The notes beneath the pieces are model-generated. The model was not told the origin of the DNA, ran no database searches, and saw nothing but the letters and a program-made list of their open reading frames with translations. The position numbers and the translations under genes were made by a program. DNA of 64,000 nt from Bolinopsis microptera (Eukaryota; Ctenophora; Tentaculata; Lobata; Bolinopsidae), in the NCBI RefSeq assembly GCF_026151205.1, contig NC_087072.1:6868084-6932083 (forward strand). The letters run 5' to 3'. Positions 1 to 64,000 of this stretch are shown piece by piece. The first letter of the stretch is position 1. Every line of letters begins with the position of its first letter.

Positions 1-840
1 TGTATACGTTCTCTCTCCACATGTTAATCTTATCATAATACGATTCCTGCATACTTAGTACTACTGTTCCCGATTGATCCTTCAAGGAATTTGGCTTTGG
101 AGTTTTGCCTTCCTGAGGCAATATGACGGTGATACCCACCCACTTGCTCGGCCTGTCCTCAACCTAAGCTTCCACTGTAGGCATTGCTTTATTGATTCCC
201 CCTCTTCCTCGAGAAACACCGTGCGTCTCTATGTTAGACTCCGTGATGACCATGCAAGATGGTTAGTTCTAGTTGACATTCCAACTATATGAAAAGGTCC
301 AGATCGCCACTTTATATTCTTAATTCTTGAGAGAGAGTGATACGGAACAGCAACCTCGTGAATCATCCTATTTAATCGCTTCACCTCGCCACATTCGCCT
401 ACTTTTCATTTATTGGGGTAAAGGACATTATGACATAAGTTTTGAGATATGAGAGATAAATTAATATTTAGTCCTATTTAACCTATTATTTTACAACCCT
501 TTATTAACTTTGGTTTATATTGTTATCTATATCTTCAGATTATATATTCACATAATTTGATGTCCTAATTACAATAGAAATTACTGTCCAAATTGTATCT
601 GTACCACGAGAGTTTGGGCTGTGGGACTACTTCACAGAGAGATGTCTCAAACGGATAAGGACTTCCATAAACATCGGAGCTTGGAATTTCCATTACTTAG
701 TAAATAGGAGCACATTAATCGTAGTTAATTTAATTCATAACACAAAGTTATGAAATATAATAAATAAATTATCTCTAGAAGTCATGGAATTTGGAGCTTT
801 TTAAATTGGCCGTTATGAAGTGGTCGTGCTGAAAAACCGA
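1..840 (+). repeat. R repeat, copy 0 (left-truncated by the window)
   Basis: The right-hand part of the R block. It matches R1-R6 from the phrase tgtatccgttctctctccac through the gaagtcatggaaaattggag motif to the end at ...gtgctgaaacccga, and then passes into A. No supported gene. Confidence 0.9.
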
Positions 841-867
841 GTACGACAGTTAAACAAGCACATGCTA

Positions 868-882
868 CGAAGTAGCGCGCGC
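868..882. repeat. CpG word cgaagtagcgcgcgc at the left end of A1
   Basis: The word cgaagtagcgcgcgccg stands close to the A/R junction at the left of A and again at the right end of A (15044). A second gtagcgcgcg lies at about 922. The flanking sequence differs, so these are short end-specific direct repeats. Confidence 0.6.
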
Positions 883-1572
883 AGGGCCAGATTTGCTCTA
901 ACCAGTGACATCTCCGCTTGCAGTAGCGCGCGACTTGTGGTAACAAGCGCGTCACGCATACGCGTAGACCACAGGCTTGATGAAGGGGCCAGATCATTAC
1001 AGTGTGTCAATACTGTGACTAGGATAAGGACCCGAGTGCCTGTTCGCTTTTTTCGGACCCCTGGTGACAACTACTCTTGATAATTGCTCTACAACATTGA
1101 TATTTATTGTAGGTTTTTTAAATTACCAGGGCACGAGACGCCGAGTTGGAAGATGGAGTGACTGGACCGTCGACGGTCCAATATGGAACTATATATTGTA
1201 CAGAGTATTCACCCGTTAAATATTTGTATCCACTCGGCGGGTCTTGGTAGGTTATAGTTAGTACTATATACAAATACAAATACTGTAGGATGCTTAAAAA
1301 GACAATCTTTAAGTTTAATTTTAATGAAAGAAAAATATCACATATTCAATATTACATCTATATCAATAATTAACAAAGTACACTTTAAAATTTTGTTGAT
1401 ATATTGACCAAATCTATTAACAATTAATCTAGTTATTCTTGCAGTAGTATAATAGGTAGTAATAGTTATTTATATTGTCACACTGAAGGTTAGGATTTTG
1501 TAATGTCCGGTAGGGCGTAGCACCACTTTAAATTAATAGTTTGCGTTATTTAAAAATACCGTTTTCAACTGA

Positions 1573-1582
1573 GGGGGGGGGG
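1573..1582. other. 10-base G-run, private to copy 1
   Basis: The other copies read caactgaatattcttg at this place with no G-run. Confidence 0.8.
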
Positions 1583-8674: not shown

Positions 8675-9717
8675 TCTTCCGAGATCAGCACGTGCACCAT
8701 ATCTTAGTCTACCTTGTTTACTCGCCCAGTGCAGGCCTGAAGGTACAAGAGATGTTTAGATATTACTGTTAATCTATATTATCTTGGACTATTTGGAATT
8801 AGTCAGATGGCGTCTTGAATGTATTTTATTACTATAATCAAAGAACTACAAACTGTTACATTTATTCTATTTTCTTTAATATATGAGATCTACAAGTATG
8901 GGATCACTAGACTGTCGGCTTTGTAGTAATTTATTACAGTAACCAATTTTTGTACTGATTTGAATATCCTGCACAGCAGATTGAAAACTTTTTTCGATTT
9001 ATTTATTATTCTTGTTGTTTTATGTGTAATTTAATTTCTAATCTTATTCTAATTCTAAATTCTACTCAGAAATGATCAGAAGCTTCAAATTATTTTAGTA
9101 ATTATTACAGTAGTGTAGCACCATAGGGACTGGCTGCTCGGACTATTATTGTGTAGGTAGGTTTTACAAATATTAGACGTTTAATTATGGTGTTTTGCGG
9201 AAAAGATGAAATCTAAAAAAACTTACTAGGAAATGGTAATCCAAGAACTGATCTCAAAAACTATATAGTGACTCGTGAATCTAAAACTTGTGTGGAAATG
9301 GTCATGTGAAATGAAAGGGAATGTGTGTGAGCAGACTAATGGTGACAAAAATCTTTCAAATAAGGTGAACTAGAGCGGTAATTGAGAATGGGTTGGTGGT
9401 CAGTATGCATGGAGCTAGGTCTAAATGGTTGTCTAATTAATTGAGTGAAGCTTATTGGTTGAAGTGAAATGAATGGAAATGCGTCTACAAAACTTAATGA
9501 TAGTATGAAACTAATTGCTGGAAGAGGAAATGTGAACTCTTATACGATTTTAAGTGCGATCTGTTGTGTCTAAATGGACAAGTTTGAGTCAAATTTTAGA
9601 AACAAATATTTTAATAGTGGCTTTCTCCTTACAACCCACAAGTAAACATGGCTGCTTGCAACCATCTGTCGTTGTATCCAAATTAATAATAGTGGTTCGT
9701 AATTTCTATCTCATTTA

Positions 9718-9886
9718 CCCAGGGACAAAAGGAAATCGCGGCATGTACGGGATTCGCGATTTTTCCCCAATATTTGCGATACAAATTTTATGTTTAGTTT
9801 AATGTTATAGTCTGTTAAAATCGCGGTATATCGCGATTTTGGCAAAATAATCGCGAGATCCTTTTTGTCCCTGATATTTACCTGGG
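9718..9886. mobile_element. MITE-like element with TA-flanked inverted ends, copy 1
   Basis: 169 bases with inverted ends: left CCCAGGGACAAAAGGAAATC, right end reading inward CCCAGGTAAATATCAGGGAC then AAAAAGGATCTCGCG. The shared core is CCCAGG…GGGACAAAA…CGCG. It is flanked by TA on both sides (9716-9717 and 9887-9888), the target duplication of Tc1/mariner-type transposons. The interior is AT-rich with paired atcgcg words and no coding capacity. It lies in the intron between E2 and E3. The structural call is good; the superfamily is inferred from the TA alone. Confidence 0.6.
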
Positions 9887-10035
9887 TATGGACACTGGTA
9901 TGATCAAAAATCACTGTATCTCTTTTCCTTGTCACGCTTTCTCAGAGGAAGGAATACTTGCCGAACTTTACTATGGGCAATTAAGATTAATAATTAGGAA
10001 GATTAGTTCTCATCATTGATGTTCTCTGGGAAAAG

Positions 10036-10069
10036 ATATATAATTAATATATATATATTATATATATAT
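10036..10069. repeat. (AT)n microsatellite, copy 1
   Basis: Alternating TA tract in the intron between E2 and the MITE-like element. Confidence 0.85.
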
Positions 10070-10742
10070 CATTAAAACATACCTATTATATGTTTTCTGT
10101 TTTCCATGTATAAATTGTATTATATAGTAAGATTACTGAAATAATATCATTAGTTTTGTCAAACATACAATCAAAGATTTTAAAATCATTAATTTTTCAC
10201 ATATGAGATAAATTGCTGTACGTTGATCATGTATGTAGTTATTTGTTATCACTGCACTGGTACGATATAGAGTTGTACAGGGTGTGTTGCAAGTCTCGTG
10301 TCCAAATTTTTGAAAATGGCTCTCAAAATCTACAAATGAGGCAAACAGTTTATTTTGTTTCAAATCGTAGACAAATTATACATTTTTAAAATACCTTTTT
10401 GTTTTCTCTTCATGTCAAAATATATGTTTTACACTTTCTAAGTAGTTCAACAAGTTATTTGTGGCTCTCACAGCAACGTGTCGCACCGTTCCACTCACTA
10501 AAGGGTTACATTTCACAGTCAGTCAATGCTATTAAGTTGAGCCGTAATTTCAAGAGCATACACCATTATATTCTTCAATCCTTGATTTCACGCATTCCAT
10601 CTTAATATGAAGATTTTTAGTGTATATTTTCCAATAAGTATTAAAACGTAATATGTAATTTAGTAAATATTAGTAATTAGTATTTAGTGATTATTAGTAC
10701 CTTGATTACTCTTCCCAAGTCCCTGCAAACCACTCCATTACC

Positions 10743-10900
10743 ACGACCTGCCGGTTTCTCCGCGGTGGTTGGCCAGCGTGGGCAGGACTACAAACGAATT
10801 GTCTCTGTACACCATCACTGGTGCGGGAATCGGTCCGGCACCGAGCTAAACGTGCCTTGTGGATAGACCGTTCCTTCTTGAGCCATCTCGGACAGGAGCA
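10743..10900 (-). CDS. E2: Pro/Ser-rich exon, copy 1
   Basis: A 47-50% GC island in AT-rich surroundings, open on the minus strand in the majority sequence for about 55 codons. Readable pieces are MAQEVNGLIPQ, SSVPVPIPSTSDG and FVGLPHWQPPRRYWQ. An acceptor (atcccag) lies 14 bases before the ATG, so this is either a first coding exon or an internal exon starting one base after the acceptor, which completes the phase-2 codon left by E1. The donor is either CAG/GTCAGG (phase 0, compatible with E3) or AG/GTATGG (phase 2). I do not recognise the protein. The other strand is also largely open, so strand is the main uncertainty; the phase agreement with E1 favours minus. Confidence 0.42.
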
Positions 10901-11040
10901 CTGGATTATCTTATAATGTTAATATAGTATTACCGTAGGAATGATTTTAACCAGTTTTAACATTTTGAAACAAAATTCTAGAAAAAAAACGAGGAATGGA
11001 CAAAGTAGAAAAATGGAAAGTTCGAATTTCTATCTCTTAC

Positions 11041-11240
11041 CACTCTTTGTAAGTGGTAGGTATGATAAGATGTCTGGGTAATGACCACAACTCCTCCTCC
11101 CTGGTTGCTGGAGGCATCTCGGACATTGGTAATCCTTCAAGAAGAGCCGCTTAACACTGCGCTCTACTCTGGTTCGATCATTGGCGATCAACAAGCGTTG
11201 TGTGGTATTTGGATCTGCGAGTAATGATACACAGATGGGT
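11041..11240 (-). CDS. E1: basic, Gln/Arg-rich exon upstream of E2, copy 1
   Basis: Minus-strand majority frame of about 60 codons that ends at a strong donor (AAAGAGTG/GTAAGAG) in phase 2. The following E2 acceptor supplies the missing base. Readable pieces are WINTRRSKYHTT, EQSKAQCKAALLEGLQRRDA and PTTYKE. The upstream edge is uncertain because the copies disagree around 11235-11260. No family recognised; the QSKAQCKAALLEGLQRRDA part could form a short amphipathic helix. Exon status is inferred from open frame, donor and phase agreement. Confidence 0.35.
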
Positions 11241-11671
11241 TATTTATCAATACTCCTCGTCATTCCCTCCATTGCTTTTATTGCAGCTAGGGCTGCTAAT
11301 ATCCTATGCTAGATCTACAAATTTTGACACATTTAATGAGAAAAGACATTTTTTGAGAAAAGACAATTTTATTTATTTATCGCTAATTTATTACACAATC
11401 AATCAATAAATAATTCCGAAATGAATTATTCCCAACCTAAAGGTTGGCGCTAGGTGTTATAACCCTCTAAGATGTTAGGAAAATAATAAAAACAGAGCTT
11501 GTTTCATTAGCTCTTGTCGTCAAAAAATGCAGATTCTTCTTTTTAATTAAATACCAAAACCCTCCCATCTCCATATCCTATATGGCTCTGAGACGAGTAC
11601 TCAGATGACATCAACTTCATCAACCCATGTTAGAGACCTTTAAAAAGCTCTTCCTCAAGCCAAATCTGTCA

Positions 11672-12149: not shown

Positions 12150-12873
12150 CTCACAAGAGACACCTACACACCTTTCGTCAACATCTAAATGGCCTACGAT
12201 TCTTCACCAATCAGACCTGTACAAATATAGTGGACACCCACCTCCCTACCTGAAGTGTAATCGCTCTTTCGTTGGTGTATGATTGGACACATCATTGGAG
12301 GGAATGGATGAACTTCCAGCCTATTTTCAATCTTTATTTGCTATTATTCATGAGACTGACGTAACTTTTAAAGGGAGGGCTTGGTAAACCTTGTATAAAT
12401 TTATTTGATTAGATAATGACCCTTAAATCGAAAGAAAATGTTTATTCTTAGATCAATTTCAGGATTTTGGAGATTTGAGAGCAATTGTATTTCTCTTGAT
12501 TGAGGTTACTGGAGTTTTTTGAGAAAATTTAGTTTTATATTTTGAAGGACCTTTATTTTTTGGGGGTCACAGCTACAATAAGTTTTTAGAATTGCTGTTT
12601 TCAGTTTTTGAACTTTGATATGGTTTATATATAAATAATTTAAAGTTTCAAGCTACCACACTACCACACACACACTAGTGAAACAAATTTTTAGTGAAAC
12701 AAATTAAAGTTTTACCTTTATTTTACAATCATAATATTATTATATTTATAAGCCTCGTTTGAAAGTTTTAAATTGTAATATAGATCCACATTTTTATTTT
12801 AAATTCAATTTTATGTATTAAATCTATTAACTGCCGCAAAGCGCGCCATTCTTCAAGGAAACAAACAATTCAA

Positions 12874-12947
12874 AGAAAACAACAATTTTATTTAGGATCA
12901 GTTAAGCAGAGACAATAATTATTTTAATAATAATAGTGCAAACTTAG
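12874..12947 (+). repeat. 80-base direct repeat, right member, copy 1
   Basis: Reads gaaaacaacaattttattta, then gatcagttaagcag, and ends in actagtgcaaactttag-like sequence. Partner of the copy at 11672. Confidence 0.75.
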
Positions 12948-15086: not shown

Positions 15087-16437
15087 TGTTAGATTGGGGT
15101 ATAGTGAATTGAGGAGTGAACAGGTTTGCATTATCTCACGGCCTGTATTATGTATTTATAGACAAATTGTTTTTGTGGTTACTGAAAGACTGGTAGTCGA
15201 TCTAGATGGTTAGTCTGATAAGTTTTGAAGTTTTATCTATTAGGGTTGCAATTGTCCAAGGCGTGTAGGCTGTTGTTAGTATTTTTAAGTCTCTTCGATA
15301 TAATTAGTTGTTTTTTAGAGTTGTGTTCGTTACGGTGGGGAAAAGCTGTAGGCATTAATAGATTGTTATAAAGTTTCAATTTATTAGAGCTTATAGTTAA
15401 AAGAATACTTTCATTATTGTAACAGCATTGTTTTTTGATTTATTGAGTTGACAAACTAGCGTGGTGTTTACAAGAGTGCCAGAGAACCAGCTCAGCTTCA
15501 AACTCCAAAGACCTGTCAACCAGCACGTACAAAAAGGTAGCTCGCCTTCCGCCTTCGCCTTTCGCCTTCTGCATTACCTGTTCCTATCATGGCCCGGGTG
15601 TCTTGGCCTGCCTGTATCCGTTCTCTCTCCATTGTTACTCATTTCTATTATAGATTCCTCGCTCTACTAGTACTACCTGTTCCCGATAGATCCTTCAGAA
15701 TTAGCTATGGAGTTCCTTTCCTGAGGCTATTTGACGGTGTTACCCTCCCCACTGCTCTGCCTGTCCTCACCTAAGCACACCAGTCGCATTGCTTTATTGA
15801 TTCCCCTCCTTCTCGTGAACCGTTCGTCACTATGTTAGTCCTCGAGAGACCATGCAGATGGTTCAGCTCTAGTTGAACATTCCACTATATGAAAAAGGCC
15901 AGATCGCCACTTTATATTCCTTATTACTTGTGAGAGAGAGAAAGGAACTGCGACTCGTGAATCATCCTATTTAATCGCTTCAACCTCGCCTACCATTCGA
16001 TACTACTCAATTTATTGGGGTAAATGGAATTATGACTAAGTTATGAGATATGAGTGATAAATTAATATTGTATAGTCCTTTTAACCCTATTATTTTTCAA
16101 CCCTTTATTAACTTGTTTTAATTGGTTATCTTCCAGATATAAATTCCATAAAATTCTGAGTCCATTATTACAATAGAAATTACTGTCCACTAAATGTATC
16201 TGTACAAAGAGAGTTTGGGCTGGAATACTTTCCCCGAGAGGAGTCTCAAACGGAAAGACTTCCCATTAACATCGGAACTTGATTTTCCATTACTCTTGTG
16301 ATAAGGAGCCCATTTTACGTAGTTAATTTATTACCATCACATATAGTATGAAATATAATAATTAATAATCTCATAGAAGTCATGGAAAAATTGGAGCATT
16401 AAATAGGCGTTAAGTAAGTTGTCGTGCTGAAACCCGA
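15087..16437 (+). repeat. R repeat, copy 1 (A-R-B side)
   Basis: A block of about 1.35 kb that recurs at 19772 in direct orientation and again in each unit. It begins near tgttagattggggtatag and ends near gtgctgaaacccga. Inside it lies a C+T-rich stretch around 15541-15610 (cgccttccgccttcgcc-like) and an AT-rich right end with aataaataaataat. Left flank is A, right flank is B. Short open frames in its centre change frame between copies and are not supported as a gene. The length and direct arrangement around B resemble long terminal repeats, but I see no primer-binding site, gag or pol. Confidence 0.92.
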
Positions 16438-17100
16438 AATTTATTTTTGTGCGCTTAACAATGTAGCCCTAATGCGGCTCTCTCTGTATCAAATTTTGTA
16501 GCAAAAAATTTTCAAAAAATATTGAAGAGACACAAACTTTAGTTTGATTGTTTTTATAGTGCACCGTTAAGTGCAATTTATTTTATGTTACATTGATATT
16601 AGTTGTTGCAGCCATCGCCATAAAATGAGAAGTCACAACAGAGTAGTAGGTTGAAAGAGATAAAAGTGATGTAATAATAATGAGAATAAGAGAAGAAGAT
16701 GTTTAAAGAGAAAGAAGTTGATATATTATAGGAAATATTCGCCGTTATTATTAGATAAAGATAGAATGATGCGGAGAGATGTATGATGTTACGAGATATT
16801 GTGATTTATGCTATTATGAGATTTGAATGTGAGACAAGTTATATTAGGGGAGATATATCAAACTGCAGTATAAATTATTAGCGGCTAAGGGATACGGGGT
16901 TCAGAAGATGTTGTGAAGTTTTTTGGGTGGAGGGTGCTATAATGGTTGTTGACAGGTGTTAGTTTTAATTAGTAGATGGGTTCTTATCTGTTTTCTTGAG
17001 TGTTGTGATACTCCAAAAGAGCCTCATGCGTGGGTTAGAAAACACTTCGATTCAGCCCCTACGACCTTCGAACTTTGAAACTAAGATTGGCACATGATTT

Positions 17101-17395
17101 TGCCGTTAAAATAGGTATGCGGACGTGAAGAAGAGAAGATATGTACAGGAGGGGTGATTTGATAAAGGGGTTTGTTGTTTAAAAAGATAAAGATGATTGC
17201 GTAATAGGTATGCGGGGACGTGAAGAAGAGAAGTTTATTATGAATTATGATGACACAGGAGGGGAGATTTTGATAAAGGGTTTGTTGTTTAAAAAAATAA
17301 AGTTGATTTAGTTTGCAATAGGGTATGCAGACGTGAAGAAGAAAGGAAGATTTTTTTAAAAAATGAAGTAGATACTTAGAGAAGTGATAATTTGA
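17101..17395. repeat. Three tandem subrepeats of ~95-115 bases in B, copy 1
   Basis: Three successive units, each with tatgcggacgtgaagaag then a tacaggaggggagat-like word, gataaagg, ttgttgtttaaaaa and aagatgattt. The tatgcgg words are at about 17116, 17209 and 17324. The second unit has an extra aattatgatga segment. The third ends early and passes into aagattattttaattgagtag. Confidence 0.85.
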
Positions 17396-17479
17396 TATAG
17401 TAAGTGGCTGTTGTTTAAAGTTGGCATGTGGAATCATGATGGGAAATAAGGATGGGAAGAGGGATGTGCTCCTTATAAT

Positions 17480-18212
17480 CCAGTTCCTTAACAGGGGGAG
17501 CGGATCCGCAAGATCCGGGGACACGTTAACATTTATATAGGTGGAGAGGTAAAACTGAAGGCTCCGTGTCTACCGAAGTGTAGAATTATCACTCTGCTTG
17601 GTACCCTCCTAGTCGGCCGTGTGTTTTCGGGCTACCTGGTGTTCAGTACCTGGAGCCTTGTCACCCCAGTGACTGGTGATACGTCCCAGGCATGTGGGAA
17701 CACGAGTGGTACGTGGACGCGTCCACAACCTAGCTAGTATCTTATCTTTTTGAACCACTCATAGGTGGAAATTTACCTGAAAGGGTGTTAAATATAAATT
17801 TGGAAGTTAAGATCTAGTGAACGGCAAGCAAGAGAAAACGGTCAAAGTTATAGTTGTGACAGCCTAAGTCTCTTTGGATAAGGACCGTCGGTGGAACATA
17901 GTGTGCCAATCCAATTACTGGTATATCCTTCGCTACAGACTGGGTCCTTGCCGAGTAGGTTTACATATGCGTTACATCCTTTTATGTAAAAGGTTGCGTG
18001 ATCTGCTCAATGTACAGTCGGGCCTACATAAGCTAATAGAGACTTGGTCTTTTGATCGTACAGTTAGTAAGCGAATGTAGCTGTTGTGATCGATGGGATT
18101 AAAGTGAACCTCGGGAGCAATGGGCAGTTCTTTAAAACTGCGAAATGGGTCAGCTCAGGACTGCGCCTGTTACACATATGATTAAGTATGAATAAATAAG
18201 TAAGTAAGTTGT
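17480..18212 (+). mobile_element. Retroposon-like block with simple-repeat tail, copy 1
   Basis: A GC-richer block of about 700 bases in AT-rich DNA. It starts near cggatccgcaagatccg, which can form a short hairpin (17501-17517). It ends in gcgcctggttacacatatga followed by ttaagtaagaataaataagtaagtaag. A unique block ending in a short tandem tail is typical of the 3' end of a truncated LINE or a SINE. I see no reverse transcriptase frame, no A/B-box promoter and no target duplication, so the assignment is tentative. Confidence 0.35.
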
Positions 18213-19771
18213 GCATAAAAATGAATGTTATGTTGAGTTGAAGATGTTGAAATGTGACAAGGAGTCGAAGACCAGAAGTGACATAATTTTGTTGAAGTTG
18301 GATGTAAATTTACGTGTGAAATATGGCTGGTGGCTGCTCATTATTACTACTGCATTAGGCCATTTATAGATTTATGAAGAAATATGTAAGTACTACTATG
18401 ATTATTTTTGATTCTCACCGCCGAATACCGAAAAAGTTACGAACAAGTTGAGAGAAACTGTACAAGGTCAGATGTTGTAGCGATTATAATTAATTAGAAA
18501 AATTGCCCTTTGTAGCTGCAAATCCTTTGCTCTGGTTAGAATTGTTTATGCTGTGTGATGTAGTTACCGTCCGGCTGATGAGTGAGGCGCTTAGTAGTAT
18601 CATATTTAAAATAAGTCAAGTCGTTTAGATAAGAGTGGTAGTATTCGAATTAAGATAGTATGTATTATTGATTAAGTAATTCGGTGAATTAAGTTATAAA
18701 CGCTGATCGAAGAATAGCCAAGTAGAGTTGCGTTTTTTACTTTGTTTTTTAAAAGTTTTATTTTGTTGTGATTTTGTGAGACAAATGTGCTATAGAGATT
18801 TATCGTCATAACATGTATTGTAGATCATTATTAGTATGGTTTAATGTTAATAAAAAAAAAAGATAATAAGAGTAAAAAATTATAATAATAAAATAAAGAT
18901 AAGTAAGTAAGAAGATTAAAAAGTATGATTGGTCGAAATTTTATTTTTATTATTTTTCTTAAGTTATGAAGTATCACTATGTGAGTGAGCTATTAACAAC
19001 GTCGAGACCTCCTATTTCTATAAGATTCCGATATAATAAAACTAAACGATAATAAAATTAACACTATAATATTGGATAACATGCTTAAATTATTATTTTT
19101 GTTTTAACGTGTATTGTTAACACGGTGTCTCTCTATCGGGAGGAGTACAGACTTTTAATGTTGTGCTGTAATACCGCTGAAGTAGTGTTATGTGAAAAAT
19201 ACCTTGAGGTGAGACCACTTTATAGATTTTAATTTAAGTGCTATTAGCTGTTTGTAAGGTATGATCCGATATTTGTATTTGTTTATTATTAATTAATTAT
19301 TAAACAATTTAAAATGTATTAGTAAATTTAACAAACGAAAAAAGTATTTCTTAAATGTACGAGATGGAAGTTTTTAAGAGGACATTACCATGAGGTACAC
19401 GTTAACGATGACTATAAGTATAGAGAAAAGTGTATACCTCCACTGAACATTCATTTTCGCACTGTTCTCTCTAAACTCAGTACACAGAATAGGAATACAA
19501 TTACAAACGAATTTTACTTTTAAATATTAATTTGGTAAATTCAAATGTTTGTTTGTACGATTATATTTATTTTGTTGGTTGTGCGCGAGAAAATTCGATA
19601 GGTCTTTAAATTAACGATTTTTTACCATAGAAAACGGGCATACCTTATTACTAATTGTTCTTTTGGAAATTTTTTAAAAGAAAAAGAAGAAGAAGGTTGT
19701 TGATTTATCATATTCTTTAAAGTATTAGATAGTTTTGCTTTGGATGGTCGTCATTTAATTTCGATCTGGGA

Positions 19772-30535: not shown

Positions 30536-30571
30536 TAAGGGACTGAGTACAGATCAAAAATCACAGTTTCT

Positions 30572-30587
30572 CCCCCCCCCACCCCCA
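30572..30587. other. C-run, private to copy 2
   Basis: Copies 1 and 3 lack it between cacagtttc and tttttccttgtc. Confidence 0.78.
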
Positions 30588-38330: not shown

Positions 38331-38399
38331 TGTAGTTAAAAGTTGCATGTGGAATCATGCGGGGAAAATAAGGAATTGGAGTGGGATGAGCTCCTTATA

Positions 38400-39138
38400 A
38401 TCACAGTCCTTTAAGGGGGAGGGTGATCCGCATGGATCCGGGGACACGTTAACTTTCTATATTGCTGGAGAGGGAAACTGAAGGCTCCCGTGTCTAACGA
38501 AGTGTGAATTAAACACACTGCCTGGTACCCTCTAGACCGCGTGTTCGGGCTACCTCGGTGTTCTGTACCTGGAGCTGTCACCCAGGACTGAGGAATACGT
38601 CCCAGGCAAGTGGTGGAACACGGTGTACGTGGACGACAGTCCACACTAGTTGTATCTTATCTTTTTGAACCCCCTAAGGTGGAAAATTAACCAGAAAGGG
38701 AGTAAATAAATAATTGGTTGTTAAGACTCTTGTGAACAGGCAAGCGCCATGAGAAATACGTCAAAGTTCATAGATGTGACAGCTAAGTCCTCTATGATAA
38801 TGACCGTCGGTGAACACTAGATGTGCTATCCCACTTACTGGTCATCATCGCTACAGACTTGGGTCTTGCCTTGGTAGGTATTCACATAGATGGTATCTCT
38901 TGTTATGCTAAAATGGTTCGCGTGATCTGCTCTTGTACGTCGGGCTCATACATAAGGCTAAAAGCGACTTGGTCTTTATGATCGTCAGTTAGTAAGCGAA
39001 TGTTGTGGTTGTGGATCGAGGGGATTTAAAAAGTGAACCTCGGAAGCATGGGCTGTCTTTTTAAAATGCGAAATGGGGTCAGGCAGGAATGCGCCTGGTT
39101 ACACATAATGATAAGTAAGAATAAATAAGTATGTAAGG
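38400..39138 (+). mobile_element. Retroposon-like block, copy 2
   Basis: Same block in the second unit, ending gcgcctggttacacataatga and a taagtaagaataaataagta tail. Confidence 0.34.

Positions 39139-47362: not shown

Positions 47363-47391
<29 letters not shown>
47363..47391. other. 29-base C-run, private to copy 3
   Basis: Absent at the matching place in copy 1 (about 6050) and copy 2 (about 26455). Probable artefact. Confidence 0.8.
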
Positions 47392-50104: not shown

Positions 50105-51148
50105 CTGCCGAGATCAGCCCGTTGCACCATATTTAGTCTACCTAGTTTACACGCCCAGTGCAGGCCTGAAGGGACAAGAGATTGTTATAGATAATACTGT
50201 AATCTTTTTTTATCTGGGGACTCTAATTTGGAATTAGTCAGATGCTGTCTTGAATGTGTTTTATTCTATTAATCTAAGCACTTCAAATCTGTGACATTTA
50301 TCTATTCATTATGATATGAGACTTCAAGTATGATCACTAGACTCGTCGGCCCTTTTTAGTAATTTTTTACAAGTAACTATTTTTGAACTGATTTGAATAT
50401 CTGCACAGCGATTGAAAACTTTTTTGATTTATTTAATATTCTTGTTGTATTTCTGTGTAAAATTTAATTCTTTTTCGTATTCTAATTTTCCTAATTTACT
50501 CAGACTATGATCAGAGCTTCAACTTATTTTTTAGTAATATTATTACAGTAGTGTAGCACATAGGTGTACCTGGCTGCTCGACTATTAGTGGTAGGTAGGT
50601 TTATACAAATAAAGTGACGTTAAATATGGGAGTTTTGCGGAAAAGATGATAAATCTAAAACTTACTAGAAATGTAATCCACAGAATGATCTCCAAAACTA
50701 TTCGTGACTCGTGAATCTAATACTTAGTGAGAAATGTCATGTGCATGAAAGTGGAAGGTGTGTGAGCAGTAAATCGTGACAAACTCTTTCTACATAGGTG
50801 ATACTAGAGCGGTAAATGAGAAATGGGTGGTTGGTCACGTGATGCGTGGAATTGATGGTCTAACTGGGATGGACTATTTATTTGAGTGACAGCTTATTGG
50901 TTGTGTGAAATGGTCTACAAAAACTTTAATGAATGGTTTGAAACTAATTGCTGGGAAATGTGAACTTATACGATTTTAGTGCTGAACTGTTGATTCTAAA
51001 TGGACAAGTTTGACGTCTAATTTTAGATGCAAATATTTTAAGTGGCTTTCTCTAATACCACAAGTAAAAACATGGGACTGCTTGCTCCATCTGTCGTAGT
51101 TTATTCACACAATTATAATAGTGGTTTCGTATTTCATTTCTCTTATTA

Positions 51149-51307
51149 CCCAGGGACATAAGGTAATCGCGGGCAGGTAAGGAATCGCGATTTTCCCTTT
51201 ATTGCAGACAAATTTATGTATAGTTTAATGTATATGTTGTTTAAAATGCGAGCTAATCGCGATTTTGGCAAATAACGCGAGATCCTTTTTGTCCATGATT
51301 TTCCTGG
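51149..51307. mobile_element. MITE-like element, copy 3
   Basis: Same element in the third unit; the right end has lost one G (CCTGG-TA). TA flanks both ends. Confidence 0.56.
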
Positions 51308-51455
51308 TAAGGGACTGAGTCAGATCAAAAATACAGTTCTTTTTTCCTTGTCAGCTTTCCAGAGGAATTAATACTTAGTCCGAACTTTACCTAATGGCAA
51401 TTAAGATTAATAATTAGACAGATTACGTCTCTCATAGATGTTCATCTGGGAAAAG

Positions 51456-51487
51456 ATATATATTATATATACTATATATATATATAA
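51456..51487. repeat. (AT)n microsatellite, copy 3
   Basis: Same tract in the third unit. Confidence 0.82.
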
Positions 51488-52195
51488 TCATAAATACCTA
51501 TGATATGTAGACTGAATTCTTGTTTAAATTGTATTTATAGTAAGATTTCTGAAATATTATCATAGTTTTTGTCAAATCATACAATCAAAGATTTTGAAAA
51601 ACATTAATTTTTCACAATATGAGTTAAAATGCTGTTGTAACGTTGATCATGTAATGTAGTTATTTGTTATCACTGCACTGGTACGATATTAGTGTTTTAC
51701 AGGTGTTGCTAGACTAGTGTCCAAATTTTGAATGGCTCCATAATCTAACAAATGAGGAAACAGTTTATTTTGTTTCAAATCGTAGACAAAATTATTACAT
51801 TTTAAAATACCTTTTGTTTTTCTACCATCATGTCAAATAATGTTTTACTTTCAGTAGTTAACAAGTCTTGTTCTGCCTCACGCAACTTGTCGCACGTTTC
51901 CACTCACCTAAAGGTACTTTTTCACAGATCAGTCTATGATAATTAAAATTGAGCCGTATATTTCAAGAAGCATACACCATTAATATTCTTCAATCCTTGA
52001 TTTCAGCATGCCATCTTAATATGAATGATTTATAGTGTAATTTACTATACTGTATTATAACGTAATTAGTAAATATTTGTAACTGCTAATTATTTTTACA
52101 TACTGAGTAATTAGGATTAGTGCCTATTAAGTTGTATTAAGTATGATACATGTAGCATTATATCATCGTCCAAGTCCCCTGCAACCACTCCATAC

Positions 52196-52364
52196 CTGAC
52201 CTGCCAGTATCTCCGCAGGTGGTTATGCCAGTGTGGCAGACCTACAAAACGAACTTGTCTCGTCTGTACACCATCCATTGGTGCTGGGTAATCGGGGACC
52301 GGCACCGAAGCTATACGTGCTTGTGGGATCAGACCGTTCACTTCTTGAGCCATCTCGACAGAGC
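52196..52364 (-). CDS. E2, copy 3
   Basis: Same island in the third unit. Here a minus-strand frame from the ATG at 52353 runs 78 codons in the raw sequence. It shares MAQEVNGLIPQ, the SVPVP piece, FVGLPHW and RRYWQVRYG with the majority reading, but is out of frame in the middle. Confidence 0.42.
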
Positions 52365-52506
52365 ACTGGGATTAGTATACTGTTAATTAGTTTTACACGT
52401 TGGAATGATTTTAAACGTTTTAACATTTTTGTATACAAAAAATTCTAGAATAAAACGAGAAGGAAGTGGCAAAGTAGAATAATGGAGTTCTTATTTCTAT
52501 CTCTTC

Positions 52507-52702
52507 CACTCTTTGTAAGTGGTTGGTATGTTAAGATGTCTGGGATTATGACCACAAAACTCTCCTCCCTGGTTTGCTGTGCATCCTAGACGTTGTAATC
52601 TTCAAGAAGAGCCCGATTACACTGCGCTTTACTCTGTCGATCATGGGATCATCAAGCATTGTGTGGTTTGGTTCTGCTCGTAGTACTGATCCACATGCCT
52701 GG
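52507..52702 (-). CDS. E1, copy 3
   Basis: Same block in the third unit. The donor has lost one base (ctcttccactc on the plus strand). It contributes the third vote for the MIEQSKA part. Confidence 0.3.
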
Positions 52703-53146
52703 TATATTCAATCCTGTCACTCCTCCATTTTGCTATTACTATGGCAGCTAGGGCTGCTATTATCTTCTCTAGATCCTACAATTTTGACACATTCAAGAGA
52801 AAAGTCAAATTTTTTGAGGGAAATAGACAATTTTATTATTTATCGATAATTTAGTTCACAATCAATATAAATATAATTATACATCAAGAATGAATTATTC
52901 CCAATTATTGTTGGCGCTTGGTGTTATCAATCCTCTAATTATGTTAGGACAATAAATATAACAGAGCTGGTTTTCTATAGCTCTTGTGTGCATATTGCAG
53001 ATTTCTTCTTTTTAATTAAATTACCTATCCCTACCATCTCCATATCCTATATGCCTCTTGATGACCGGAGTACTCAGATGACATCAACTTCAACAACCAT
53101 GTTAGAGACTTTAATATGCTCTTCTCTCATATGCCAAATCTGTCAA

Positions 53147-56560: not shown

Positions 56561-56593
56561 CTTTCTTCTCGAAATGAGCCCGCCCGATAGCAC

Positions 56594-57943
56594 TGTTAGA
56601 TAAGGGTATAGTTGAATTGGGAGGGTGAACAGGTTTGCAATATCTCTCGGCCTGGTTTATGGTTATTTTTTAGAATTGATTTTAGTTTTACTGAATGATG
56701 GTAGTCGATCTAGCTGGTAGTCAGATAAGTTTTGAAGTCTTTCTCAATAGGGTCTGCAATGTCCCACGGCGTGAAGCTGTAGTTTGTATTTTAAGTCTTC
56801 GTAAATTTGTAGTTATATTTAGTGTTGTGAAGTTCCCGGTGGAAAAGAGTGGCTTAAAGATTGTTAAAGTTTCAAATTTATTAGAGTTTTGTAATATGAA
56901 TACTTATCAATTATTTTAACAGCATTGATTTTGGATTAGTGTGTTGACAAAATCTAGCCGAGGTGTTACAAGAGTGCCCATGAGAACCAGCTCAGCCTTC
57001 AACATCCCCCCAATGATACTGTCAACCAGCACGACCTATATATAGGGAAGCTCGCCTTCCGCCTTCGCCTTTCGCCTTCTCATTCACACTGTTCATATCA
57101 TGGCCCTGGGTTCTTGCTCTGGCTGTATCCGTTACTCTTCCAATGTTATCATTTCTCTATTATGTTACTCGCACTATTAGTACTACCTCGTTCCGATAGA
57201 TCCTTCCAGAATAGGCTATGGAGTTCTTTACTGAGGCTATATGACGGTGTAACCCACCCATATGCTCCTGACCTCGTCTACATAAGCCGTCCACCAGTCG
57301 CATTGCACTCTTATGATTCCCACCTCTCCTCTGAGAAACCGTCGTCACTATGTTAGATCTCGAGATGACATGCAAGAGGTTCAGTTCTAGGTTGACAGAT
57401 CCATATTATGAAAAGGCCGATCGCCACTTATATTCTTTTTCCTTGAGAGAGAGAGAACGAAACAGCGACCTCGTGTTTCATCCTTTATCGCTTCACCCTC
57501 GCCACATTCCGCTACTACTTCCAATTATTGGGGATTAAATGGACATTAAGACTACGTTATGAGATTTGAGAGATAAATTAATAATTGGTAGTCCTATTTA
57601 CCCTTATTTTACAACCTTTATTAACTTGTTTTTATTGGTTATTCTTTCCAGATATATAATCACATAAAAGTTTCTGAAGTCCCTAATTTCATTTAAATTA
57701 ATGTCCAAAAGGTATTCTGTACAAAGAGAGTTTGGGCTGGGACTACTTTCCGAGGAGTTCAACGGAAGACTTCCATAACATCTGGAACTTGTATTCCATA
57801 CTCTGTTAAAAAGGAGCCCATTATACGTAGTTAATTTAATACCATCACAAAGTAATGAATATAATAAATAAATTAATCTCTAGAAGTCATGGAAAATTGG
57901 AGCATTAAATGGCCGTTAAGTATAGTTGTCGTGCTGAACCCGA
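56594..57943 (+). repeat. R repeat, copy 5 (A-R-B side)
   Basis: Counterpart of R1 in the third unit; begins at tgttagataagggtatag and passes into the B-type flank at its right end. No supported gene. Confidence 0.9.
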
Positions 57944-58604
57944 TATAGCGCTTAACAATGTTGCCCTTAATGCGGCCTCTCTCTCTGTACAAAATTTTGT
58001 TAGCAAAAAAAAATTTACATATATAATTCTGGATAGAGAGACACCAAATTCCTTGTTAGCTTGTTTTTATAGTGCACCGTTAGTGCATTTATTTATTACA
58101 TTGATATTAGTTGTTGCAGCCATCGCATAAATGATGAAGTCACAACAGAGAAGTTGGTAGAAGAGATAAAGAAGTGATGTACCTCTATAATGAGAAGTAA
58201 GGAGAGAAGATGTTAATAGAGAAGAGTGATATATTATTGAAATATACGGCCCGTTTAATTTGATAAAGATAGGAATGATGCGAGAGATGTATGATGTTAT
58301 CGAGGATAATGTGATTATGACTATTATGAGATTTTGTAATGTGAGGACAAGTATTTTATGGGAGAATTATATCAAAATGCCAGTATAAATTCATTAGCCG
58401 GCTTATAGGGTTACGGTCAGAAGTTGGTGTGAAGTTTATGGGAGGAGGTGCTATAATGGTTGTTGTCAAGGTGTTAGTTTTATTAGTAGATGGGCTCTAT
58501 CTGTTATTTGAGTGTTGTGATACTCCAAAGAAGTTCTTGGTGGTTAGAAACACTTCAGATTCAGTAGACCATTCGAATTTGAAACTAAGATTGCAACTTA
58601 TGTT

Positions 58605-58880
58605 TTTGCGTAATAGGGGTATGCGGACGTGAAGAAAAGGGAAGATATGATACAGAGGGAGATTGATAAAGGCGTTTGTTGTTTAAAAAATAAGATGATT
58701 TTAGCGTGGCTAGGGTAATGCGGACGTGAAGAGAGAAGATATTTCGAATTATGATGATACAGAGGAGATTTGATAAAGGGTTTGTTAGTTTAAAAATAAA
58801 TGATGATTTAGCTTGCAAATTTAGGGTTTTGCGGACGTGAAGAAGATAGGGAGATTATTTTAATTGAGTAGGATACTTAG
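58605..58880. repeat. Three tandem subrepeats in B, copy 3
   Basis: The same three units, with gcggacgtgaag cores at about 58621, 58720 and 58831. Confidence 0.83.
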
Positions 58881-58977
58881 AGAAGTGTATTTGATATAGA
58901 AGTGATGTGTTGTTAAAGTTGCATGGTTGGATTCATGCTGGGAATTAGGGATGGGGAAGAGGGATTGTGCTCCTTAT

Positions 58978-59727
58978 ATTCCAGTCCTTAAAGGGGGAGG
59001 CGGATCTCCGCAAGATCCGGGGACAGTTAAACATTTCTTTAGTGTGGAGAGGAAACGAAGAGCTCCCGTGTCTAAGATCAGTGAGAATTTAACACAATGC
59101 CTTGCTGTTCCTCTAGTCAGACCGTGTTTTCGGGGCTACCTGGTGTTCTGGAACTGGAGCTTGTCCCCCCCAGGACTGGAGATACGTCCCAGGGGCAAGT
59201 GGTACACGGTGGTACGTGGACGGACAGTCCCCACCTAGCTAGTATCTTATCTTTTTGAACCACAAAGGTGGAAATTTACAGAAAGGGAGTAATAGAAAGA
59301 GTTAGGTAAGATAAGATCTCGTGAACAGGCAAGGCAAGAGGAAAACGTCAAAGTTCATAGTTGTTGATCATCTGCTAAGTCCTCTAGATATATGACCGTC
59401 GGTGGAACCTAGGAGGCAAATCCCATTACTGTCATCCATCGCTACCTGACTGGTCCCTTGCCGGTATGTTCACATAAGGTAATCATCCTTTTATGTAAAA
59501 GGTTGCGTGATTTCTCAATGTACAGTCGGCTACATAAGCTAAAAGCGACTTGGTCTTTATTGATGGCCAGTTAGTAAGCGAAGTGTAGCTGTTGTGATCG
59601 AGGGATTAAAAAGTGAGACCTGGAAGGCATTGGGCAGTCTCTTTAAACTGCGGAAATGGGGTCAGCTCAGACTGCGCTCATGGATTACACTAATATGATT
59701 AAGTAAGAATAAATACAGTAAGTAAGG
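58978..59727 (+). mobile_element. Retroposon-like block, copy 3
   Basis: Same block in the third unit. The tail (taagtaagaataaatacagt then aagtaag) is the last well-matching sequence before the anomalous block that follows. Confidence 0.34.
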
Positions 59728-59755
59728 TGCATAAAATGTAAAGTTATGTTGAGTT

Positions 59756-60484
59756 GTAATACTACAATATTTACATTATTTGTTTCATGTACTATCCTAA
59801 TACCTATCTCATACCCAATAATCATAATTAATACAATAACCTATTTCATATATAAAAAATTATTAATTCATCAAAAAAAAACATAAAATTAAAACATCTA
59901 AAATTCAATTAAAAATTAAATACACCATATCACTAAAAAAAAAAAACATCTAAAACCTAAAAATAAACTAACAATAATATCTCCAAACATTATCATAATA
60001 ATCTAACAACAAAACAAATAAACAAATCCAAATAATCATTCACTTCCAAAATCATATAAATCCAATAAACATATATATCCTACTACTACATACCACAACC
60101 GAGACCAATACGATCGACCCAATTAACTCCCTCCCCACTCTATATAAAAATACCCTATACTATCCCCACCCCCCCCCGCATTAACGCTCTCTTCCTCTTC
60201 CCTAAATATAATACTCACGAAGAGATCCATCGAGCTCGTGCGCCCTCGTCTCTCCAGCCAGCTAGCCTATATAACTAACAGAACGAGCACTGCGTTACGT
60301 GTCGAGTCCCCCCTCTCACATACCTACACGCGACTCTCGACACGCTTTATTATCCCTTAATTAGCTAGACCCCCCATATCGCCTCTTCCCATCAACAATT
60401 CCGCGGCAAGAGAGAGTCATTGTCGAGCGAAGCAGCCCCTCCGAGTGATGAGAGCCGCGATTCCCAGTGAACCGTGTTGTGTCT

Positions 60485-60521
<37 letters not shown>

Positions 60522-60620
60522 CCCCCCCCAGGTCGTAGCAGTCTGCGACTAAGTAGCTATTGTGATGCGAATGGTGATGTCTGCTCTGGAATTAGAGACA
60601 TGAAATGAGAGCTAAACATA
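59756..60620. other. Copy-3-only anomalous block, G-free then C-rich
   Basis: Homology with B1 and B2 stops at gttatgttgagttg and resumes near 60620. In between, 59790-60100 contains no G at all over 311 bases. A C-rich part follows and then 34 consecutive Cs at 60487-60520 with eight more after one G. The corresponding stretch in copy 1 is about 600 bases of ordinary sequence. Most likely base-calling failure or a bad join, not a real insertion. Confidence 0.75.
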
Positions 60621-61639
60621 AAAATAATAATAATAATATTAATGATACAAGTTAAGTAAGAAGGATAAAAAGTAGGAATGTCGAATTTTATTTTAATTAT
60701 TTCTTAAGTTATGAGTTTACACTATTGTGGAGTGAGTCTTAACAGTCGAGTACTCTATTTCTATAGAAGTAATCCGATTTTATACTAACATAAGTCGATA
60801 TTCTAACATTATGCTCGACCTATATAATGATAACAAGCTTAAATTTAAATTTTGTTTTAGACGTGTATTGTTCTGAACGGTGATGTCTCTCTATCGCGGA
60901 GGAGTACAGACTTTTATATTGTTGTGCAATGTAATTACCGCTGATGACGTAGAGTTATGTGAAAAAAACTTGAGTAGGAGAGACACTTTATAATTTTTAA
61001 TTTAAGTTGCCTATTAGTGTTTGTAAGGGAATGATTCGATAAATGTATTTGATTAATTATTAATTACTATAAAACGAATTAAAATTATTAGAAAATCAAA
61101 CAAACGAGAATGGTATTGATCTAAATTGTACTGAATTGATGGGAAGATATTGTAAGGGACTTGTTCAAAAAATGCTTATTAGCCGTATGGAGTACCTCGA
61201 TTAACAGAAAGCTATAAGTATAGAGCAAGTTGAGAGGATATATACCTCCATCTGGACATCAAAGGATATCCGCAACGGTTCTCTCTAAACTCAGTACACG
61301 TTCAGAATAGGCATTATTTCAGACAAGATTACACCTCACCTTGTTTGATTCTTAATATATCCGTTAAGTCTCCACACAAACAGTTACTTCTTGAGCTAGT
61401 TGATTTTAGCCAAATGGCTTTGTTTGTACGTTTATTTTTAATTTTGTGGTTGTGCGCGTGAATACGATAGGTCTTTAAAATTACGATTTTTTCCATAAGA
61501 ACGGGCATACTTATTACTAATAGTTCTTTTGGAATATTTTTTAAAAGAAAAAGATGAAGGTTGTAGATTTATCATTTTCTTTAAAGTATTAGATAGTTTT
61601 GCTTTGACGTGGTTCGTCATTAATTTTCGATCGGGGAGA

Positions 61640-63013
61640 TGTTAGATGGGGTATACGTGAATTAGTGGGTGAACAGGTTTGCAATATCTCACGGGACCTT
61701 TATTATCGGTAATTTATAGATTTAGTTTTTAGTTTTACTGAAAGATGGTAGTCGATCTAGACTGGTTGTCAGAAAGTTTGAAGTCTTTATCAATAGGGTT
61801 GCTATTGTCCCTCGGCGTGAAGCTGTAGTTAGTATTTTAAGTCTTCGTAAAATTTAGTAGATATTGTAGAGTTGTGAGTTCGGTGGGAATAAAGCAGTGG
61901 ATTAAAGGATTGTTAAAGTTTCAAATTTATTAGAGCTTATAGTTTAAAGTAATATCTTAAGTTATTTTAACAGCATTGATTTTTGTTATTGTGTTGACAA
62001 ATGCCGAGGTGTTACATAGAGTGCAATGATGAACCAGTCAGCCTTCAACTCCCCAAAGACCTGTCAACCTGCCGCTACAAAAGGGAAGCTCGCCTTCCGC
62101 CTTCCGCCTTTCGCCTTCTGCATTCTCCTGTTCCTTTTCATGGCCCGGGGTCTTGCTCTGCTGTATCCGTTATCACTCCACATGTTACTCATTTCTATTA
62201 TAGCATTCCTCGCACTTCTAGTACTATCCTGTTCCGATAGATCCTTCCAGAATTAGGCTATGGAGTTCCTTTCCTGAGGCAAATATGACGGTGATACCAC
62301 CCCACTTTGCTATGCCTGTCACTCACATCATAAGCTCCACCTGTCGCTTTGCTTTATTGTTCCACCCTCCTTCATCGTGAAACCGTTCGTAACTATTTTA
62401 GTTCCTCGAGATGGACCTTGCAAAGATGGTTCTCGTTCTAGTTGACATTCCACTATATGAAAAGCCTGATCGCCATCTTTATATTCTTATTCTTGAGAGA
62501 GAGAGATCCGGATAACTGCAACCTCGTGTAATCATCCTATTTATCGCTTCACCATCTCCATCATTAGCTATTACTTCAATTATTGGGGTTAAATGGACAT
62601 TAAGACTAAGTTTATGAGATATGGAGATAATTTATATTGTGTGTCCTATTTAACACTATTATTTTACAACCCTTTATTAACATGTTTTATTGGTTATCTA
62701 TATCTTCCGATATAAATTCACATAAAAATCTGAAGTCCATTAATTACAATAGAAATTACTGTCCAAAAATGTATCTGTACAAGAGAGTTTGGGACTGGGG
62801 ACTACTTCCCGAGAGAGTCTCTTATCCGGAGACTTCCATTAACATCGGTAACTTGATTTTCAATAATCTAGTTAAAAGGGAGCCCATTATACGTAGTTAA
62901 TTTATTTACATCACAAGTTAATGAATATAATTAATAAATAATCTCTCTAGAAGTCATGGAAAATTGGTGCATTTAAATAGGCCGTTAAGTTAGTTGTCGT
63001 GCTGAAACCCTGA
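61640..63013 (+). repeat. R repeat, copy 6 (B-R-A side)
   Basis: Counterpart of R2 in the third unit, followed by the partial fourth A segment. No supported gene. Confidence 0.9.
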
Positions 63014-64000
63014 GTTTACGCCAGTTAAAAGCACTTGAACGAAGTAGTAAGCGCGCGCCGGGCCAGATTTGCTCTAACCGAGCCCTCTCGCTTGCAGAGT
63101 AGCGCGCGACTTGTAGAAACAAGAGCGTCACGCTGACGCGTAGTAGTCTCATGGCTTATGTGAAGGGCAAGATCATTAACAGTGGTCATACTAGTGGGTA
63201 TTGGATAAGGACCTAGTGCCTGTTCGGCTTTTCGGACCCTGGTTGACATCTTACTTTGAAATTGCTCTACAATTGGAATATTTATTGTTGTTTATAAATT
63301 ACCCAGGACGCGCGCGAGTTGGGAGCTGGAGTGACTGGACACTCGTCGACGGTCCATATGAACTAAATATTTTACGAGTGTCACCGTTTAAAATATTTGT
63401 ATCCAAATTCGGCGCGGCCCTCGTGGTAGGTGATGTTATACAAGATTACAAATACAAACTGTATGATGCATTAAAAAGACAATTCTTTAAGTTTATTTTA
63501 TTGAAAGAAAATATCACATATTCATATTACATCTATATCCAATAATTTACAAAGTACAACTTAAAATGTTTGTTGATATATTGACAAATCTATTATACAA
63601 TTAATTAGTTTATTCTGCAGTAGTATATTAGTTAGTAATTGTTAACTATAGTGCACATGAAGTTAGATTTTGTAATGGACGGTAGGGCGTAGCACATTCT
63701 TTAAATTATTATTATGCGTATTTGAATTTACCGTTTTCAATGAATCTTCTTGAACACAGTAAGTCATAAGTGATACCGTCATGATAAAAAATCTACTTAT
63801 CACATCAGAATGGCAAGCACAAGAAGAAAACTAAATTGCGCCTCATAAATGAAAAATATGATGAATAATATACAAGCTTAAGCTTACACAATGTCTTTCT
63901 AAAACAATAAATTTACACTAGAATTAGCAGTCATTTTGACCCTTTAAAACAACAGACTTTGCTGATTTAGTCTTTTTGACTTTTGATTGAGGCTCTGAAG
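63014..64000. repeat. A segment, copy 4 (right-truncated by the window)
   Basis: The first 987 bases of a fourth A segment, matching 841-1840 of copy 1. It shows that the array continues. No supported gene. Confidence 0.9.
63040..63060. repeat. CpG word at the left end of A4
   Basis: Reads cgaagtagtaagcgcgcgccg, just after R6. Confidence 0.55.

What the first reader, a model, noticed from the sequence alone, without database searches (positions are those of the whole stretch)
1..64000. A ~21-kb macrosatellite-like array with the compound layout A-R-B-R
Three full units and part of a fourth follow head to tail, with the same landmarks in the same order. Units this long, with two copies of a 1.35-kb block inside each, differ from ordinary satellites and from rDNA or histone arrays, whose genes are absent here. 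It could be an amplified chromosomal locus, a sex- or B-chromosome repeat, or a concatemer of a circular element.
Basis: seen in the sequence. Interest (0 to 1): 0.8.

Follow-up and report, generated by a model that had tools for sequence, protein, structure and literature searches.

The report
Uncorrected long-read patch of 20-kb repeats
The repeated 21-kb units are really there in the assembly, but the stretch looks like raw error-filled sequencing read used to plug a gap, so the apparent 20% differences between units are sequencing errors; the true unit is a nearly identical 20-kb block carrying one old mobile element, in what is probably a comb jelly genome.

Summary
Confirmed: the window is about three periods of a head-to-tail repeat, part of a ~5.9-unit stretch at C1:6819151-6941947. 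But its sequence looks like uncorrected long-read data. Against one cleaner copy on C8, units U1-U4 show 5.4-5.9% mismatches, 4.5-5.6% insertions and 2.4-2.8% deletions, U5 more. A>T outnumbers T>A in all 49 bins listed. Of 3,562 substitution alleles, 3,139 are private to one unit. Error alone around one shared template predicts 77.3% identity between units; 79.2% is seen, so no real divergence is detectable. The true period is about 19.98 kb. R-B-R is one inherited LTR-retrotransposon insertion (TG...CA ends, 5-bp target duplications in 4 of 4 clean copies read) without long ORFs. The genome fits Bolinopsis microptera, whose published pipeline closed gaps with TGS-GapCloser and PacBio CLR reads. 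The flanks are two haplotype-like copies of one locus, and the left join falls on the edge of a dispersed repeat, so the C1 placement is unreliable. Most likely a real, young 20-kb tandem duplication, badly represented. Interest low.

The parts
1..64000 (+). About 3.07 periods of a ~5.9-unit head-to-tail stretch (C1:6819151-6941947) of raw-read quality; period starts at about window 1, 20297, 41287, 62162
1..834 (+). R, partial: end of the 3' LTR of the R-B-R element of the preceding unit
15087..16437 (+). R, 5' LTR of the R-B-R element
   Evidence: termini of clean copies
16438..19775 (+). B, internal part of the LTR element (longest stop-to-stop ORF in the clean C8 copy 103 aa)
19776..21117 (+). 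R, 3' LTR
35956..37280 (+). R, 5' LTR, next unit
37281..40762 (+). B, internal part, next unit
40763..42094 (+). R, 3' LTR, next unit
56594..57943 (+). R, 5' LTR, third unit
57944..61639 (+). B, internal part, third unit; holds a poly-C run at 60487-60529
61640..63010 (+). R, 3' LTR, third unit
9680..11669 (+). T segment (about 2 kb): once per unit here, but at both ends of the C8 copy as T-I-T
30340..32363 (+). T segment, second occurrence in the window
51111..53143 (+). T segment, third occurrence in the window
30336..30762 (+). 427-bp island exactly identical to C8:16981833-16982259 inside otherwise erroneous sequence; probably a polishing patch (inferred)
12657..12945 (+). Stretch holding a copy of the ~185-bp dispersed repeat X; the array's left join on C1 falls at the edge of X
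47363..47391 (.). Run of 29 C, read as a low-quality patch
60487..60529 (.). Poly-C run (43 bases, 95% matches), read as a low-quality patch

Best explanation
The stretch is one (or at most a few same-strand) uncorrected PacBio-type long read inserted into the C1 scaffold as gap fill between two haplotype copies of one locus. The molecule read carried about six head-to-tail copies of a ~19.98-kb block that differ too little to be told apart. The block looks like ordinary intergenic DNA: a 2-kb segment T, next to it a 179-aa ORF that I read as a retroelement tail (recalled; only a sub-threshold Pfam match), a ~185-bp dispersed repeat X, and one LTR-retrotransposon insertion without long ORFs (R-B-R) that was there before the block multiplied. 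A cleaner ~1.1-unit copy (T-I-T) stands on C8. Most likely mechanism: recent tandem duplication by unequal exchange, at the C8 locus or a near-identical one; the placement on C1 is unreliable. Shown: raw-read-like error pattern, LTR element at a shared site, duplicated flanks, join at X. Inferred: which program made the patch, one molecule, unequal exchange, true location.
For: Against the C8 copy, U1-U4: mismatch 5.4-5.9%, insertion 4.5-5.6%, deletion 2.4-2.8%; U5 7.1/7.3/3.2%; U6, over its alignable parts, 6.2/5.2/2.9%. In the longest window alignment to C8 there are 941 gap openings and 876 mismatches over 17.3 kb. Private substitutions in U1-U5: 787 transitions to 3,210 transversions; those shared by 4 or 5 of 5 units: 52 to 58. 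A>T 1590 vs T>A 333 before C1:6898419 and 714 vs 233 after, A>T ahead in all 49 bins listed, one sparse bin left out: the asymmetry expected of a single-strand read. Simulated error on one template gives 77.3% pairwise identity (6 repeats, 77.1-77.6); observed mean 79.2% over 10 pairs. 110 of 18,268 positions (0.6%) differ from C8 in 4 or 5 of U1-U5. Quality drops near C1:6807500, and 694 cleaner bases at C1:6818457-6819150 are followed by the noisy array at 6819151. C1:6780750-6819150 and 6946824-6984345 are collinear, 99.0-99.7% identical in their best blocks. C1 length 26,206,493 and 264.65 Mb total fit B. microptera (26.2 Mb, 265 Mb), assembled from CLR reads with wtdbg, TGS-Gapcloser and pilon; TGS-GapCloser fills a gap with the single best-scoring candidate. 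LTR termini and target duplications.
Against: No raw reads or gap-filling log were seen; the origin of the patch is inferred from the error pattern and published methods. A 123-kb CLR subread is unusual (recalled). The scaffold count differs (232 here, 346 in the table). The degraded patch to the left (C1:6807500-6813889) does not show the A>T bias, so the bias is not general to poor stretches here. An excess of gaps is not unique to the array: one haplotype control had 19 gap openings to 16 mismatches, though at 0.8% total difference, and the C8 T copies show 34 transversions to 14 transitions, so the C8 reference may itself hold some error. No sequence at the right end could be tied to a flank. 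Substitutions shared by 3 of U1-U5 (61 sites) look more than simple independent error would give (my rough estimate), so a little real polymorphism may exist.
Confidence: 0.8

Rival explanations
1. The read belongs to the C8 locus: one haplotype carries about six units there, the C8 assembly shows a collapsed 1.1 units, and gap closing put the read on C1 by mistake. This refines the best explanation rather than opposing it.
For: Outside C1 the only multi-kilobase match to the A part among 40 scored candidates is on C8. The array differs from C8 at about 0.6% of sites, close to the 0.3-0.8% in three comparisons of the haplotype-like C1 flanks. The left join on C1 coincides with the edge of dispersed repeat X. 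C1 flanks carry R-B-R relatives that could mislead read mapping.
Against: Neither raw end shows C8 flank sequence, even after homopolymer compression. C8's right T differs from five of six array T copies at most readable diagnostic sites.
Confidence: 0.5
2. False tandem: the locus has a single unit and the assembler or gap closer laid several raw reads of it end to end.
For: Units are indistinguishable apart from error. Cleaner islands at C1:6818457-6819150 and window 30336-30762 could mark joins.
Against: A>T ahead of T>A in all 49 bins listed, without a step at the 427-bp island. Among exact runs to C8 inside the array one is 427 bp; the next are 125 and 101 bp. C8 independently shows T repeated 19.98 kb apart. 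The gap closer selects one candidate per gap.
Confidence: 0.12
3. The read went several times round a ~20-kb circular DNA molecule, so six units are six passes over one molecule.
For: Units identical apart from error. Recombination between the two T copies on C8 would release a circle of exactly this unit.
Against: A T x T circle should carry a right-then-left hybrid T in every unit; 5 of 6 T copies look left-type at the readable diagnostic sites (L:R counts 28:3, 34:0, 32:2, 28:0, 26:0), and the sixth is hybrid with its right-type part within the exact 427-bp island. A circle without adapters should rarely be read (recalled).
Confidence: 0.07
4. An old macrosatellite whose units really differ by about 20%.
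For: The blastn identities of about 80% taken at face value.
Against: Indel excess, transversion excess, strand asymmetry, star-like private differences and error-only simulation.
Confidence: 0.01

Closest known systems
Gap fill by TGS-GapCloser with uncorrected PacBio CLR reads (PMC7476103, PMC10232365: passages from term searches)
   Same: Named in the published B. microptera pipeline; steps between clean and noisy sequence; one candidate per gap; clean polish-like islands
   Different: No gap log or reads available here; the filled stretch (about 123 kb) is unusually long; the tool's paper describes an error-correction step that would have had to be skipped or to fail here
Tandem segmental duplication / macrosatellite (D4Z4 and DXZ4 named from abstract starts in the listing only)
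   Same: Head-to-tail multi-kilobase units, near identical
   Different: No conserved gene or array function found; copy number and place unverified; only about six units
Non-autonomous LTR retrotransposon (LARD-like; class name recalled)
   Same: R-B-R: near-identical direct repeats of 1.4-1.8 kb, TG...CA ends, 5-bp target duplications
   Different: No primer-binding site established and no coding capacity found; here it is a passenger in every unit, not shown to have multiplied the unit

Membership tests
Uncorrected long-read patch | Indels about as frequent as mismatches, against a cleaner copy | tested here: met
   one low-divergence control also had more gaps than mismatches, 19 to 16
Uncorrected long-read patch | Strand-asymmetric, transversion-rich differences private to each copy | tested here: met
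Uncorrected long-read patch | Abrupt change of quality at the edges | tested here: met
   Left: near C1:6807500 and at 6819150/6819151; right end runs into degraded sequence up to about 6946823
Uncorrected long-read patch | The original read or gap log | not testable with these tools
   No read archive on hand
Macrosatellite / tandem array | Head-to-tail multi-kilobase units | tested here: met
Macrosatellite / tandem array | Array confirmed on native DNA by depth or spanning accurate reads | not testable with these tools
   No reads
Macrosatellite / tandem array | Real sequence differences between units | tested here: inconclusive
   None detectable above error; one T hybrid coincides with the exact island
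rDNA or other structured-RNA array | rRNA, tRNA or other Rfam family in the unit | tested here: not met
   0 Rfam matches at gathering score in window, L001, L002; 0 tRNAs in L001-L003 (the window was not scanned with ARAGORN)
Histone gene array | Histone genes in the unit | tested here: inconclusive
   No histone family in 8 of the 11 ORFs of at least 90 aa listed for L001 and L002; the unit's ends on L017 and L003 were not scanned
LTR retrotransposon (R-B-R) | Near-identical terminal direct repeats | tested here: met
   99.05% C8, 99.87% C9, 99.06% C1 left, 99.93% C7
LTR retrotransposon (R-B-R) | TG...CA ends and target-site duplication | tested here: met
   5-bp duplications in 4 of 4 clean copies read: AGCAC (C8), CTGGG (C9), GCTAG (C1), CCCTC (C7)
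LTR retrotransposon (R-B-R) | Primer-binding site and polypurine tract | tested here: inconclusive
   GGGGAGA precedes the 3' repeat; no tRNA match was tried
LTR retrotransposon (R-B-R) | gag/pol coding | tested here: not met
   Longest internal stop-to-stop ORF 103 (C8), 109 (C9), 221 aa (C7); the C8 ORF has no Pfam match, the other two were not scanned

The most novel reading that the evidence does not exclude
The read is several passes round, or one pass along, a near-identical 20-kb repeat set free from the T-I-T locus on C8 by recombination between its T copies: an extrachromosomal circle or a very young amplification in a comb jelly.
Probability: 0.08. Interest if true: 0.4.

Novelty: new member of a known kind. 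Interest (0 to 1): 0.15.

Why it matters
Mainly as a warning. Raw-read gap fills in a published ctenophore reference can look like old, diverged arrays without genes; ages, gene losses or selection estimates taken from such stretches would be wrong. A real tandem duplication of a 20-kb block is ordinary biology.

Tried and rejected
Old diverged array: rejected by error spectrum and simulation.

R as a satellite block: rejected; LTR of one insertion with target-site duplications.

A real unit-specific conversion tract in the T of window 30340-32363 (12 right-type sites, then left-type): at first it looked like proof of real unit differences; the right-type part was then found to coincide with a 427-bp exact island, so it may be polishing. 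Left open.

Tying the raw ends to flanks: homopolymer-compressed searches found no convincing match for C1:6941960-6946820 and 6813900-6818450. The best local alignment scores were 1.11-1.17 times the best of 6 shuffles, which is no better than the 1.15 reached by a control stretch of the array against targets without its repeats; the 6 shuffles were scored against one target only.

Two reads instead of one: tested as a change of error profile at the 427-bp island; no step seen, though rates rise somewhat after it.

Recount: searches counted 84 filler N of U3 as mismatches (or used a rate that did); the numbers given in the report are those without them, except for the A>T and T>A counts (N does not enter those), the pair patterns, and the observed pairs and the 1% simulation.

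Species check through 18S rRNA: one search gave no usable answer and was not repeated; the species rests on assembly size, largest chromosome and methods.

Papers: PMC10232365, PMC11797021 and PMC7476103, passages from term searches only; other papers seen only in search listings.
Full report
OBSERVATION. The window (C1:6868084-6932083 of a 264.65-Mb genome) is a head-to-tail repeat: long collinear matches at about 20.3-21.0 kb and twice that, about 77-84% identical. Each period holds two copies of a 1.35-kb block R around a 3.3-3.7-kb segment B. The stretch continues on both sides: six successive units U1-U6 match one cleaner copy on C8, over C1:6819151-6941947, about 5.9 periods.

QUALITY. 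The C8 relative stands at C8:16961850-16984112. Aligned to it, units U1-U4 show 5.4-5.9% mismatches, 4.5-5.6% inserted and 2.4-2.8% deleted bases; U5 is worse (7.1, 7.3, 3.2%) and U6 aligns only in seven pieces. Single-base indels dominate. Clean comparisons in the same genome (three haplotype-like flank blocks, one LTR pair) differ by 0.3-1.0%; gap openings to mismatches were 1:7, 2:4, 19:16 and 1:7, so one of the four also has more gaps than mismatches. The two T copies on C8 differ by 5.6% with 34 transversions to 14 transitions and 21 gap openings, so part of C8 may carry residual error too. Over 12,804 positions covered by all six units there are 3,562 substitution alleles against C8: 3,139 in one unit only, 306 in two, 50 in three, 15 in four, 30 in five, 22 in six. 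Those shared by two units are spread over all 15 pairs (14-27 each), without tree-like structure. In U1-U5 transitions make up 20% of private alleles and 47% of those shared by four or five units. A>T exceeds T>A in all 49 bins listed, as a single-strand read would give. The array also holds runs of up to 88 C. With the measured error rates on one shared 4.1-kb template, simulated pairs are 77.3% identical; the ten real pairs average 79.2%. With 1% true divergence per unit the simulation gave 75.7%. The simulation uses unbiased errors, so biased real errors agree more often; a small true divergence cannot be ruled out, a large one can. The mean period of about 20.7 kb is inflated by insertions; on C8 it is 19.98 kb.

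SURROUNDINGS. C1:6780750-6819150 and 6946824-6984345 are collinear: 99.0-99.7% identical in the best blocks, 92% over 6780853-6788747, 78-86% where the left copy is degraded, with kilobase-size insertions in one or the other. I read them as two haplotypes placed one after the other (inferred). The left copy is nearly exact until about 6807500, then erroneous, has 694 cleaner bases at 6818457-6819150 (99.0%), and then meets the array. That join lies at the edge of a ~185-bp repeat X dispersed over the genome (878 first-look candidates, 40 scored), with short shared sequence at the junction. The right end fades into sequence that I could not place, until about 6946823. The left degraded patch lacks the A>T bias, so it is probably a different read. 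Another stretch of the same poor kind is at C1:19113253-19118259.

ORIGIN. C1 is 26,206,493 bases long. A published table gives B. microptera 265 Mb, 13 chromosomes, largest 26.2 Mb, GC 38.5% (PMC11797021, passage); its 346 scaffolds differ from the 232 contigs here. The assembly paper states PacBio CLR reads, wtdbg, HiRise, TGS-Gapcloser, Purge Haplotigs and pilon (PMC10232365, passage). TGS-GapCloser fills a gap with its best-scoring candidate read fragment (PMC7476103, passages). This would explain the steps in quality, the one-strand error pattern, and short clean islands such as window 30336-30762, 427 bases exactly as on C8. Polishing would fail where short reads fit many near-identical units (inferred).

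ANATOMY. R-B-R is an LTR element: 99.05-99.93% identical repeats, TGTTAG...TTAACA ends, 5-bp target duplications in the four clean copies read. C8 and the array share the insertion point: long alignments run unbroken across it, and the window shows the C8 flank through errors. So the element was inserted before the block multiplied. Eight of 11 ORFs of at least 90 aa on L001 and L002 were scanned with Pfam: one match below its cut-off (DUF6451, E 0.0049), none otherwise. A 191-aa ORF (L002:5425-5997, minus strand) is longer than in 50 shuffles of the unit (maximum 172); it has no family. The C8 copy begins and ends with T: 1,999 aligned columns, 94.4% identical. At 42 isolated sites that tell left T from right T, five of six array T copies are left-type where readable (L:R 28:3, 34:0, 32:2, 28:0, 26:0); the T at window 30340-32363 has 12 right-type sites, then 21 left-type and no further right-type. 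The right-type run coincides with the exact island, so it is either polishing or a real hybrid of the kind unequal exchange makes. This is unresolved.

MECHANISM. Most likely a 20-kb block with one LTR insertion was duplicated in tandem recently, by unequal exchange, and one long molecule of it was read. One strand, unbroken phase and the C8 T-I-T copy argue that the tandem order is real; indistinguishable units leave a circular template or stacked reads possible. Location on C1 is doubtful; the C8 locus is at least as likely, as the array differs from C8 by about 0.6%, near the 0.3-0.8% of three comparisons of the C1 flanks.

VERDICT. What remains is an ordinary tandem duplication that needs reads to verify.

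Noticed in passing
L003:3554-8275 (C8:16986553-16991274): A non-LTR retroelement beside the C8 copy: a 537-aa ORF with an AlkB-like 2OG-Fe(II) oxygenase domain (Pfam PF13532, E 4e-18) and a 1001-aa ORF with endonuclease and reverse transcriptase. The first ORF has 15 other full-length, stop-free matches at 98-100% identity and a second family at about 66% (capped list). One paper search (6 of 27 papers listed) showed a listing on a demethylase (AlkB) domain in orchid Ty3/Gypsy elements and none on a ctenophore element.
   Followed up: partly
C1:6780750-6819150 and C1:6946824-6984345: Stretches of about 38 kb, collinear and about 99% identical in their best blocks apart from kilobase insertions, on either side of the array: probably two haplotypes left in one scaffold.
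   Followed up: partly
L022 (C1:19113253-19118259): Another very low-quality stretch with dozens of T and G runs. Part of it matches, on the other strand at 69-80%, the C-rich part of the array's last unit at about C1:6937214-6938625.
   Followed up: no
C1:6780853-6781997 and C1:6946927-6948664: A satellite with copies about 28 bp apart in both flanking stretches, of different length.
   Followed up: no
L002:5425-5997, minus strand: 191-aa ORF in the clean C8 unit, longer than in 50 shuffles (maximum 172), with no Pfam match.
   Followed up: partly
window 30336-30762: 427 bases identical to C8 at the start of its right T, inside raw-quality sequence; it carries right-type alleles that the other array T copies mostly lack.
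   Followed up: partly
L024 (C8:17059463-17060230): A 768-column match at 94.9% to C8:16973547-16974288, a part of the unit, 86 kb further along C8.
   Followed up: no
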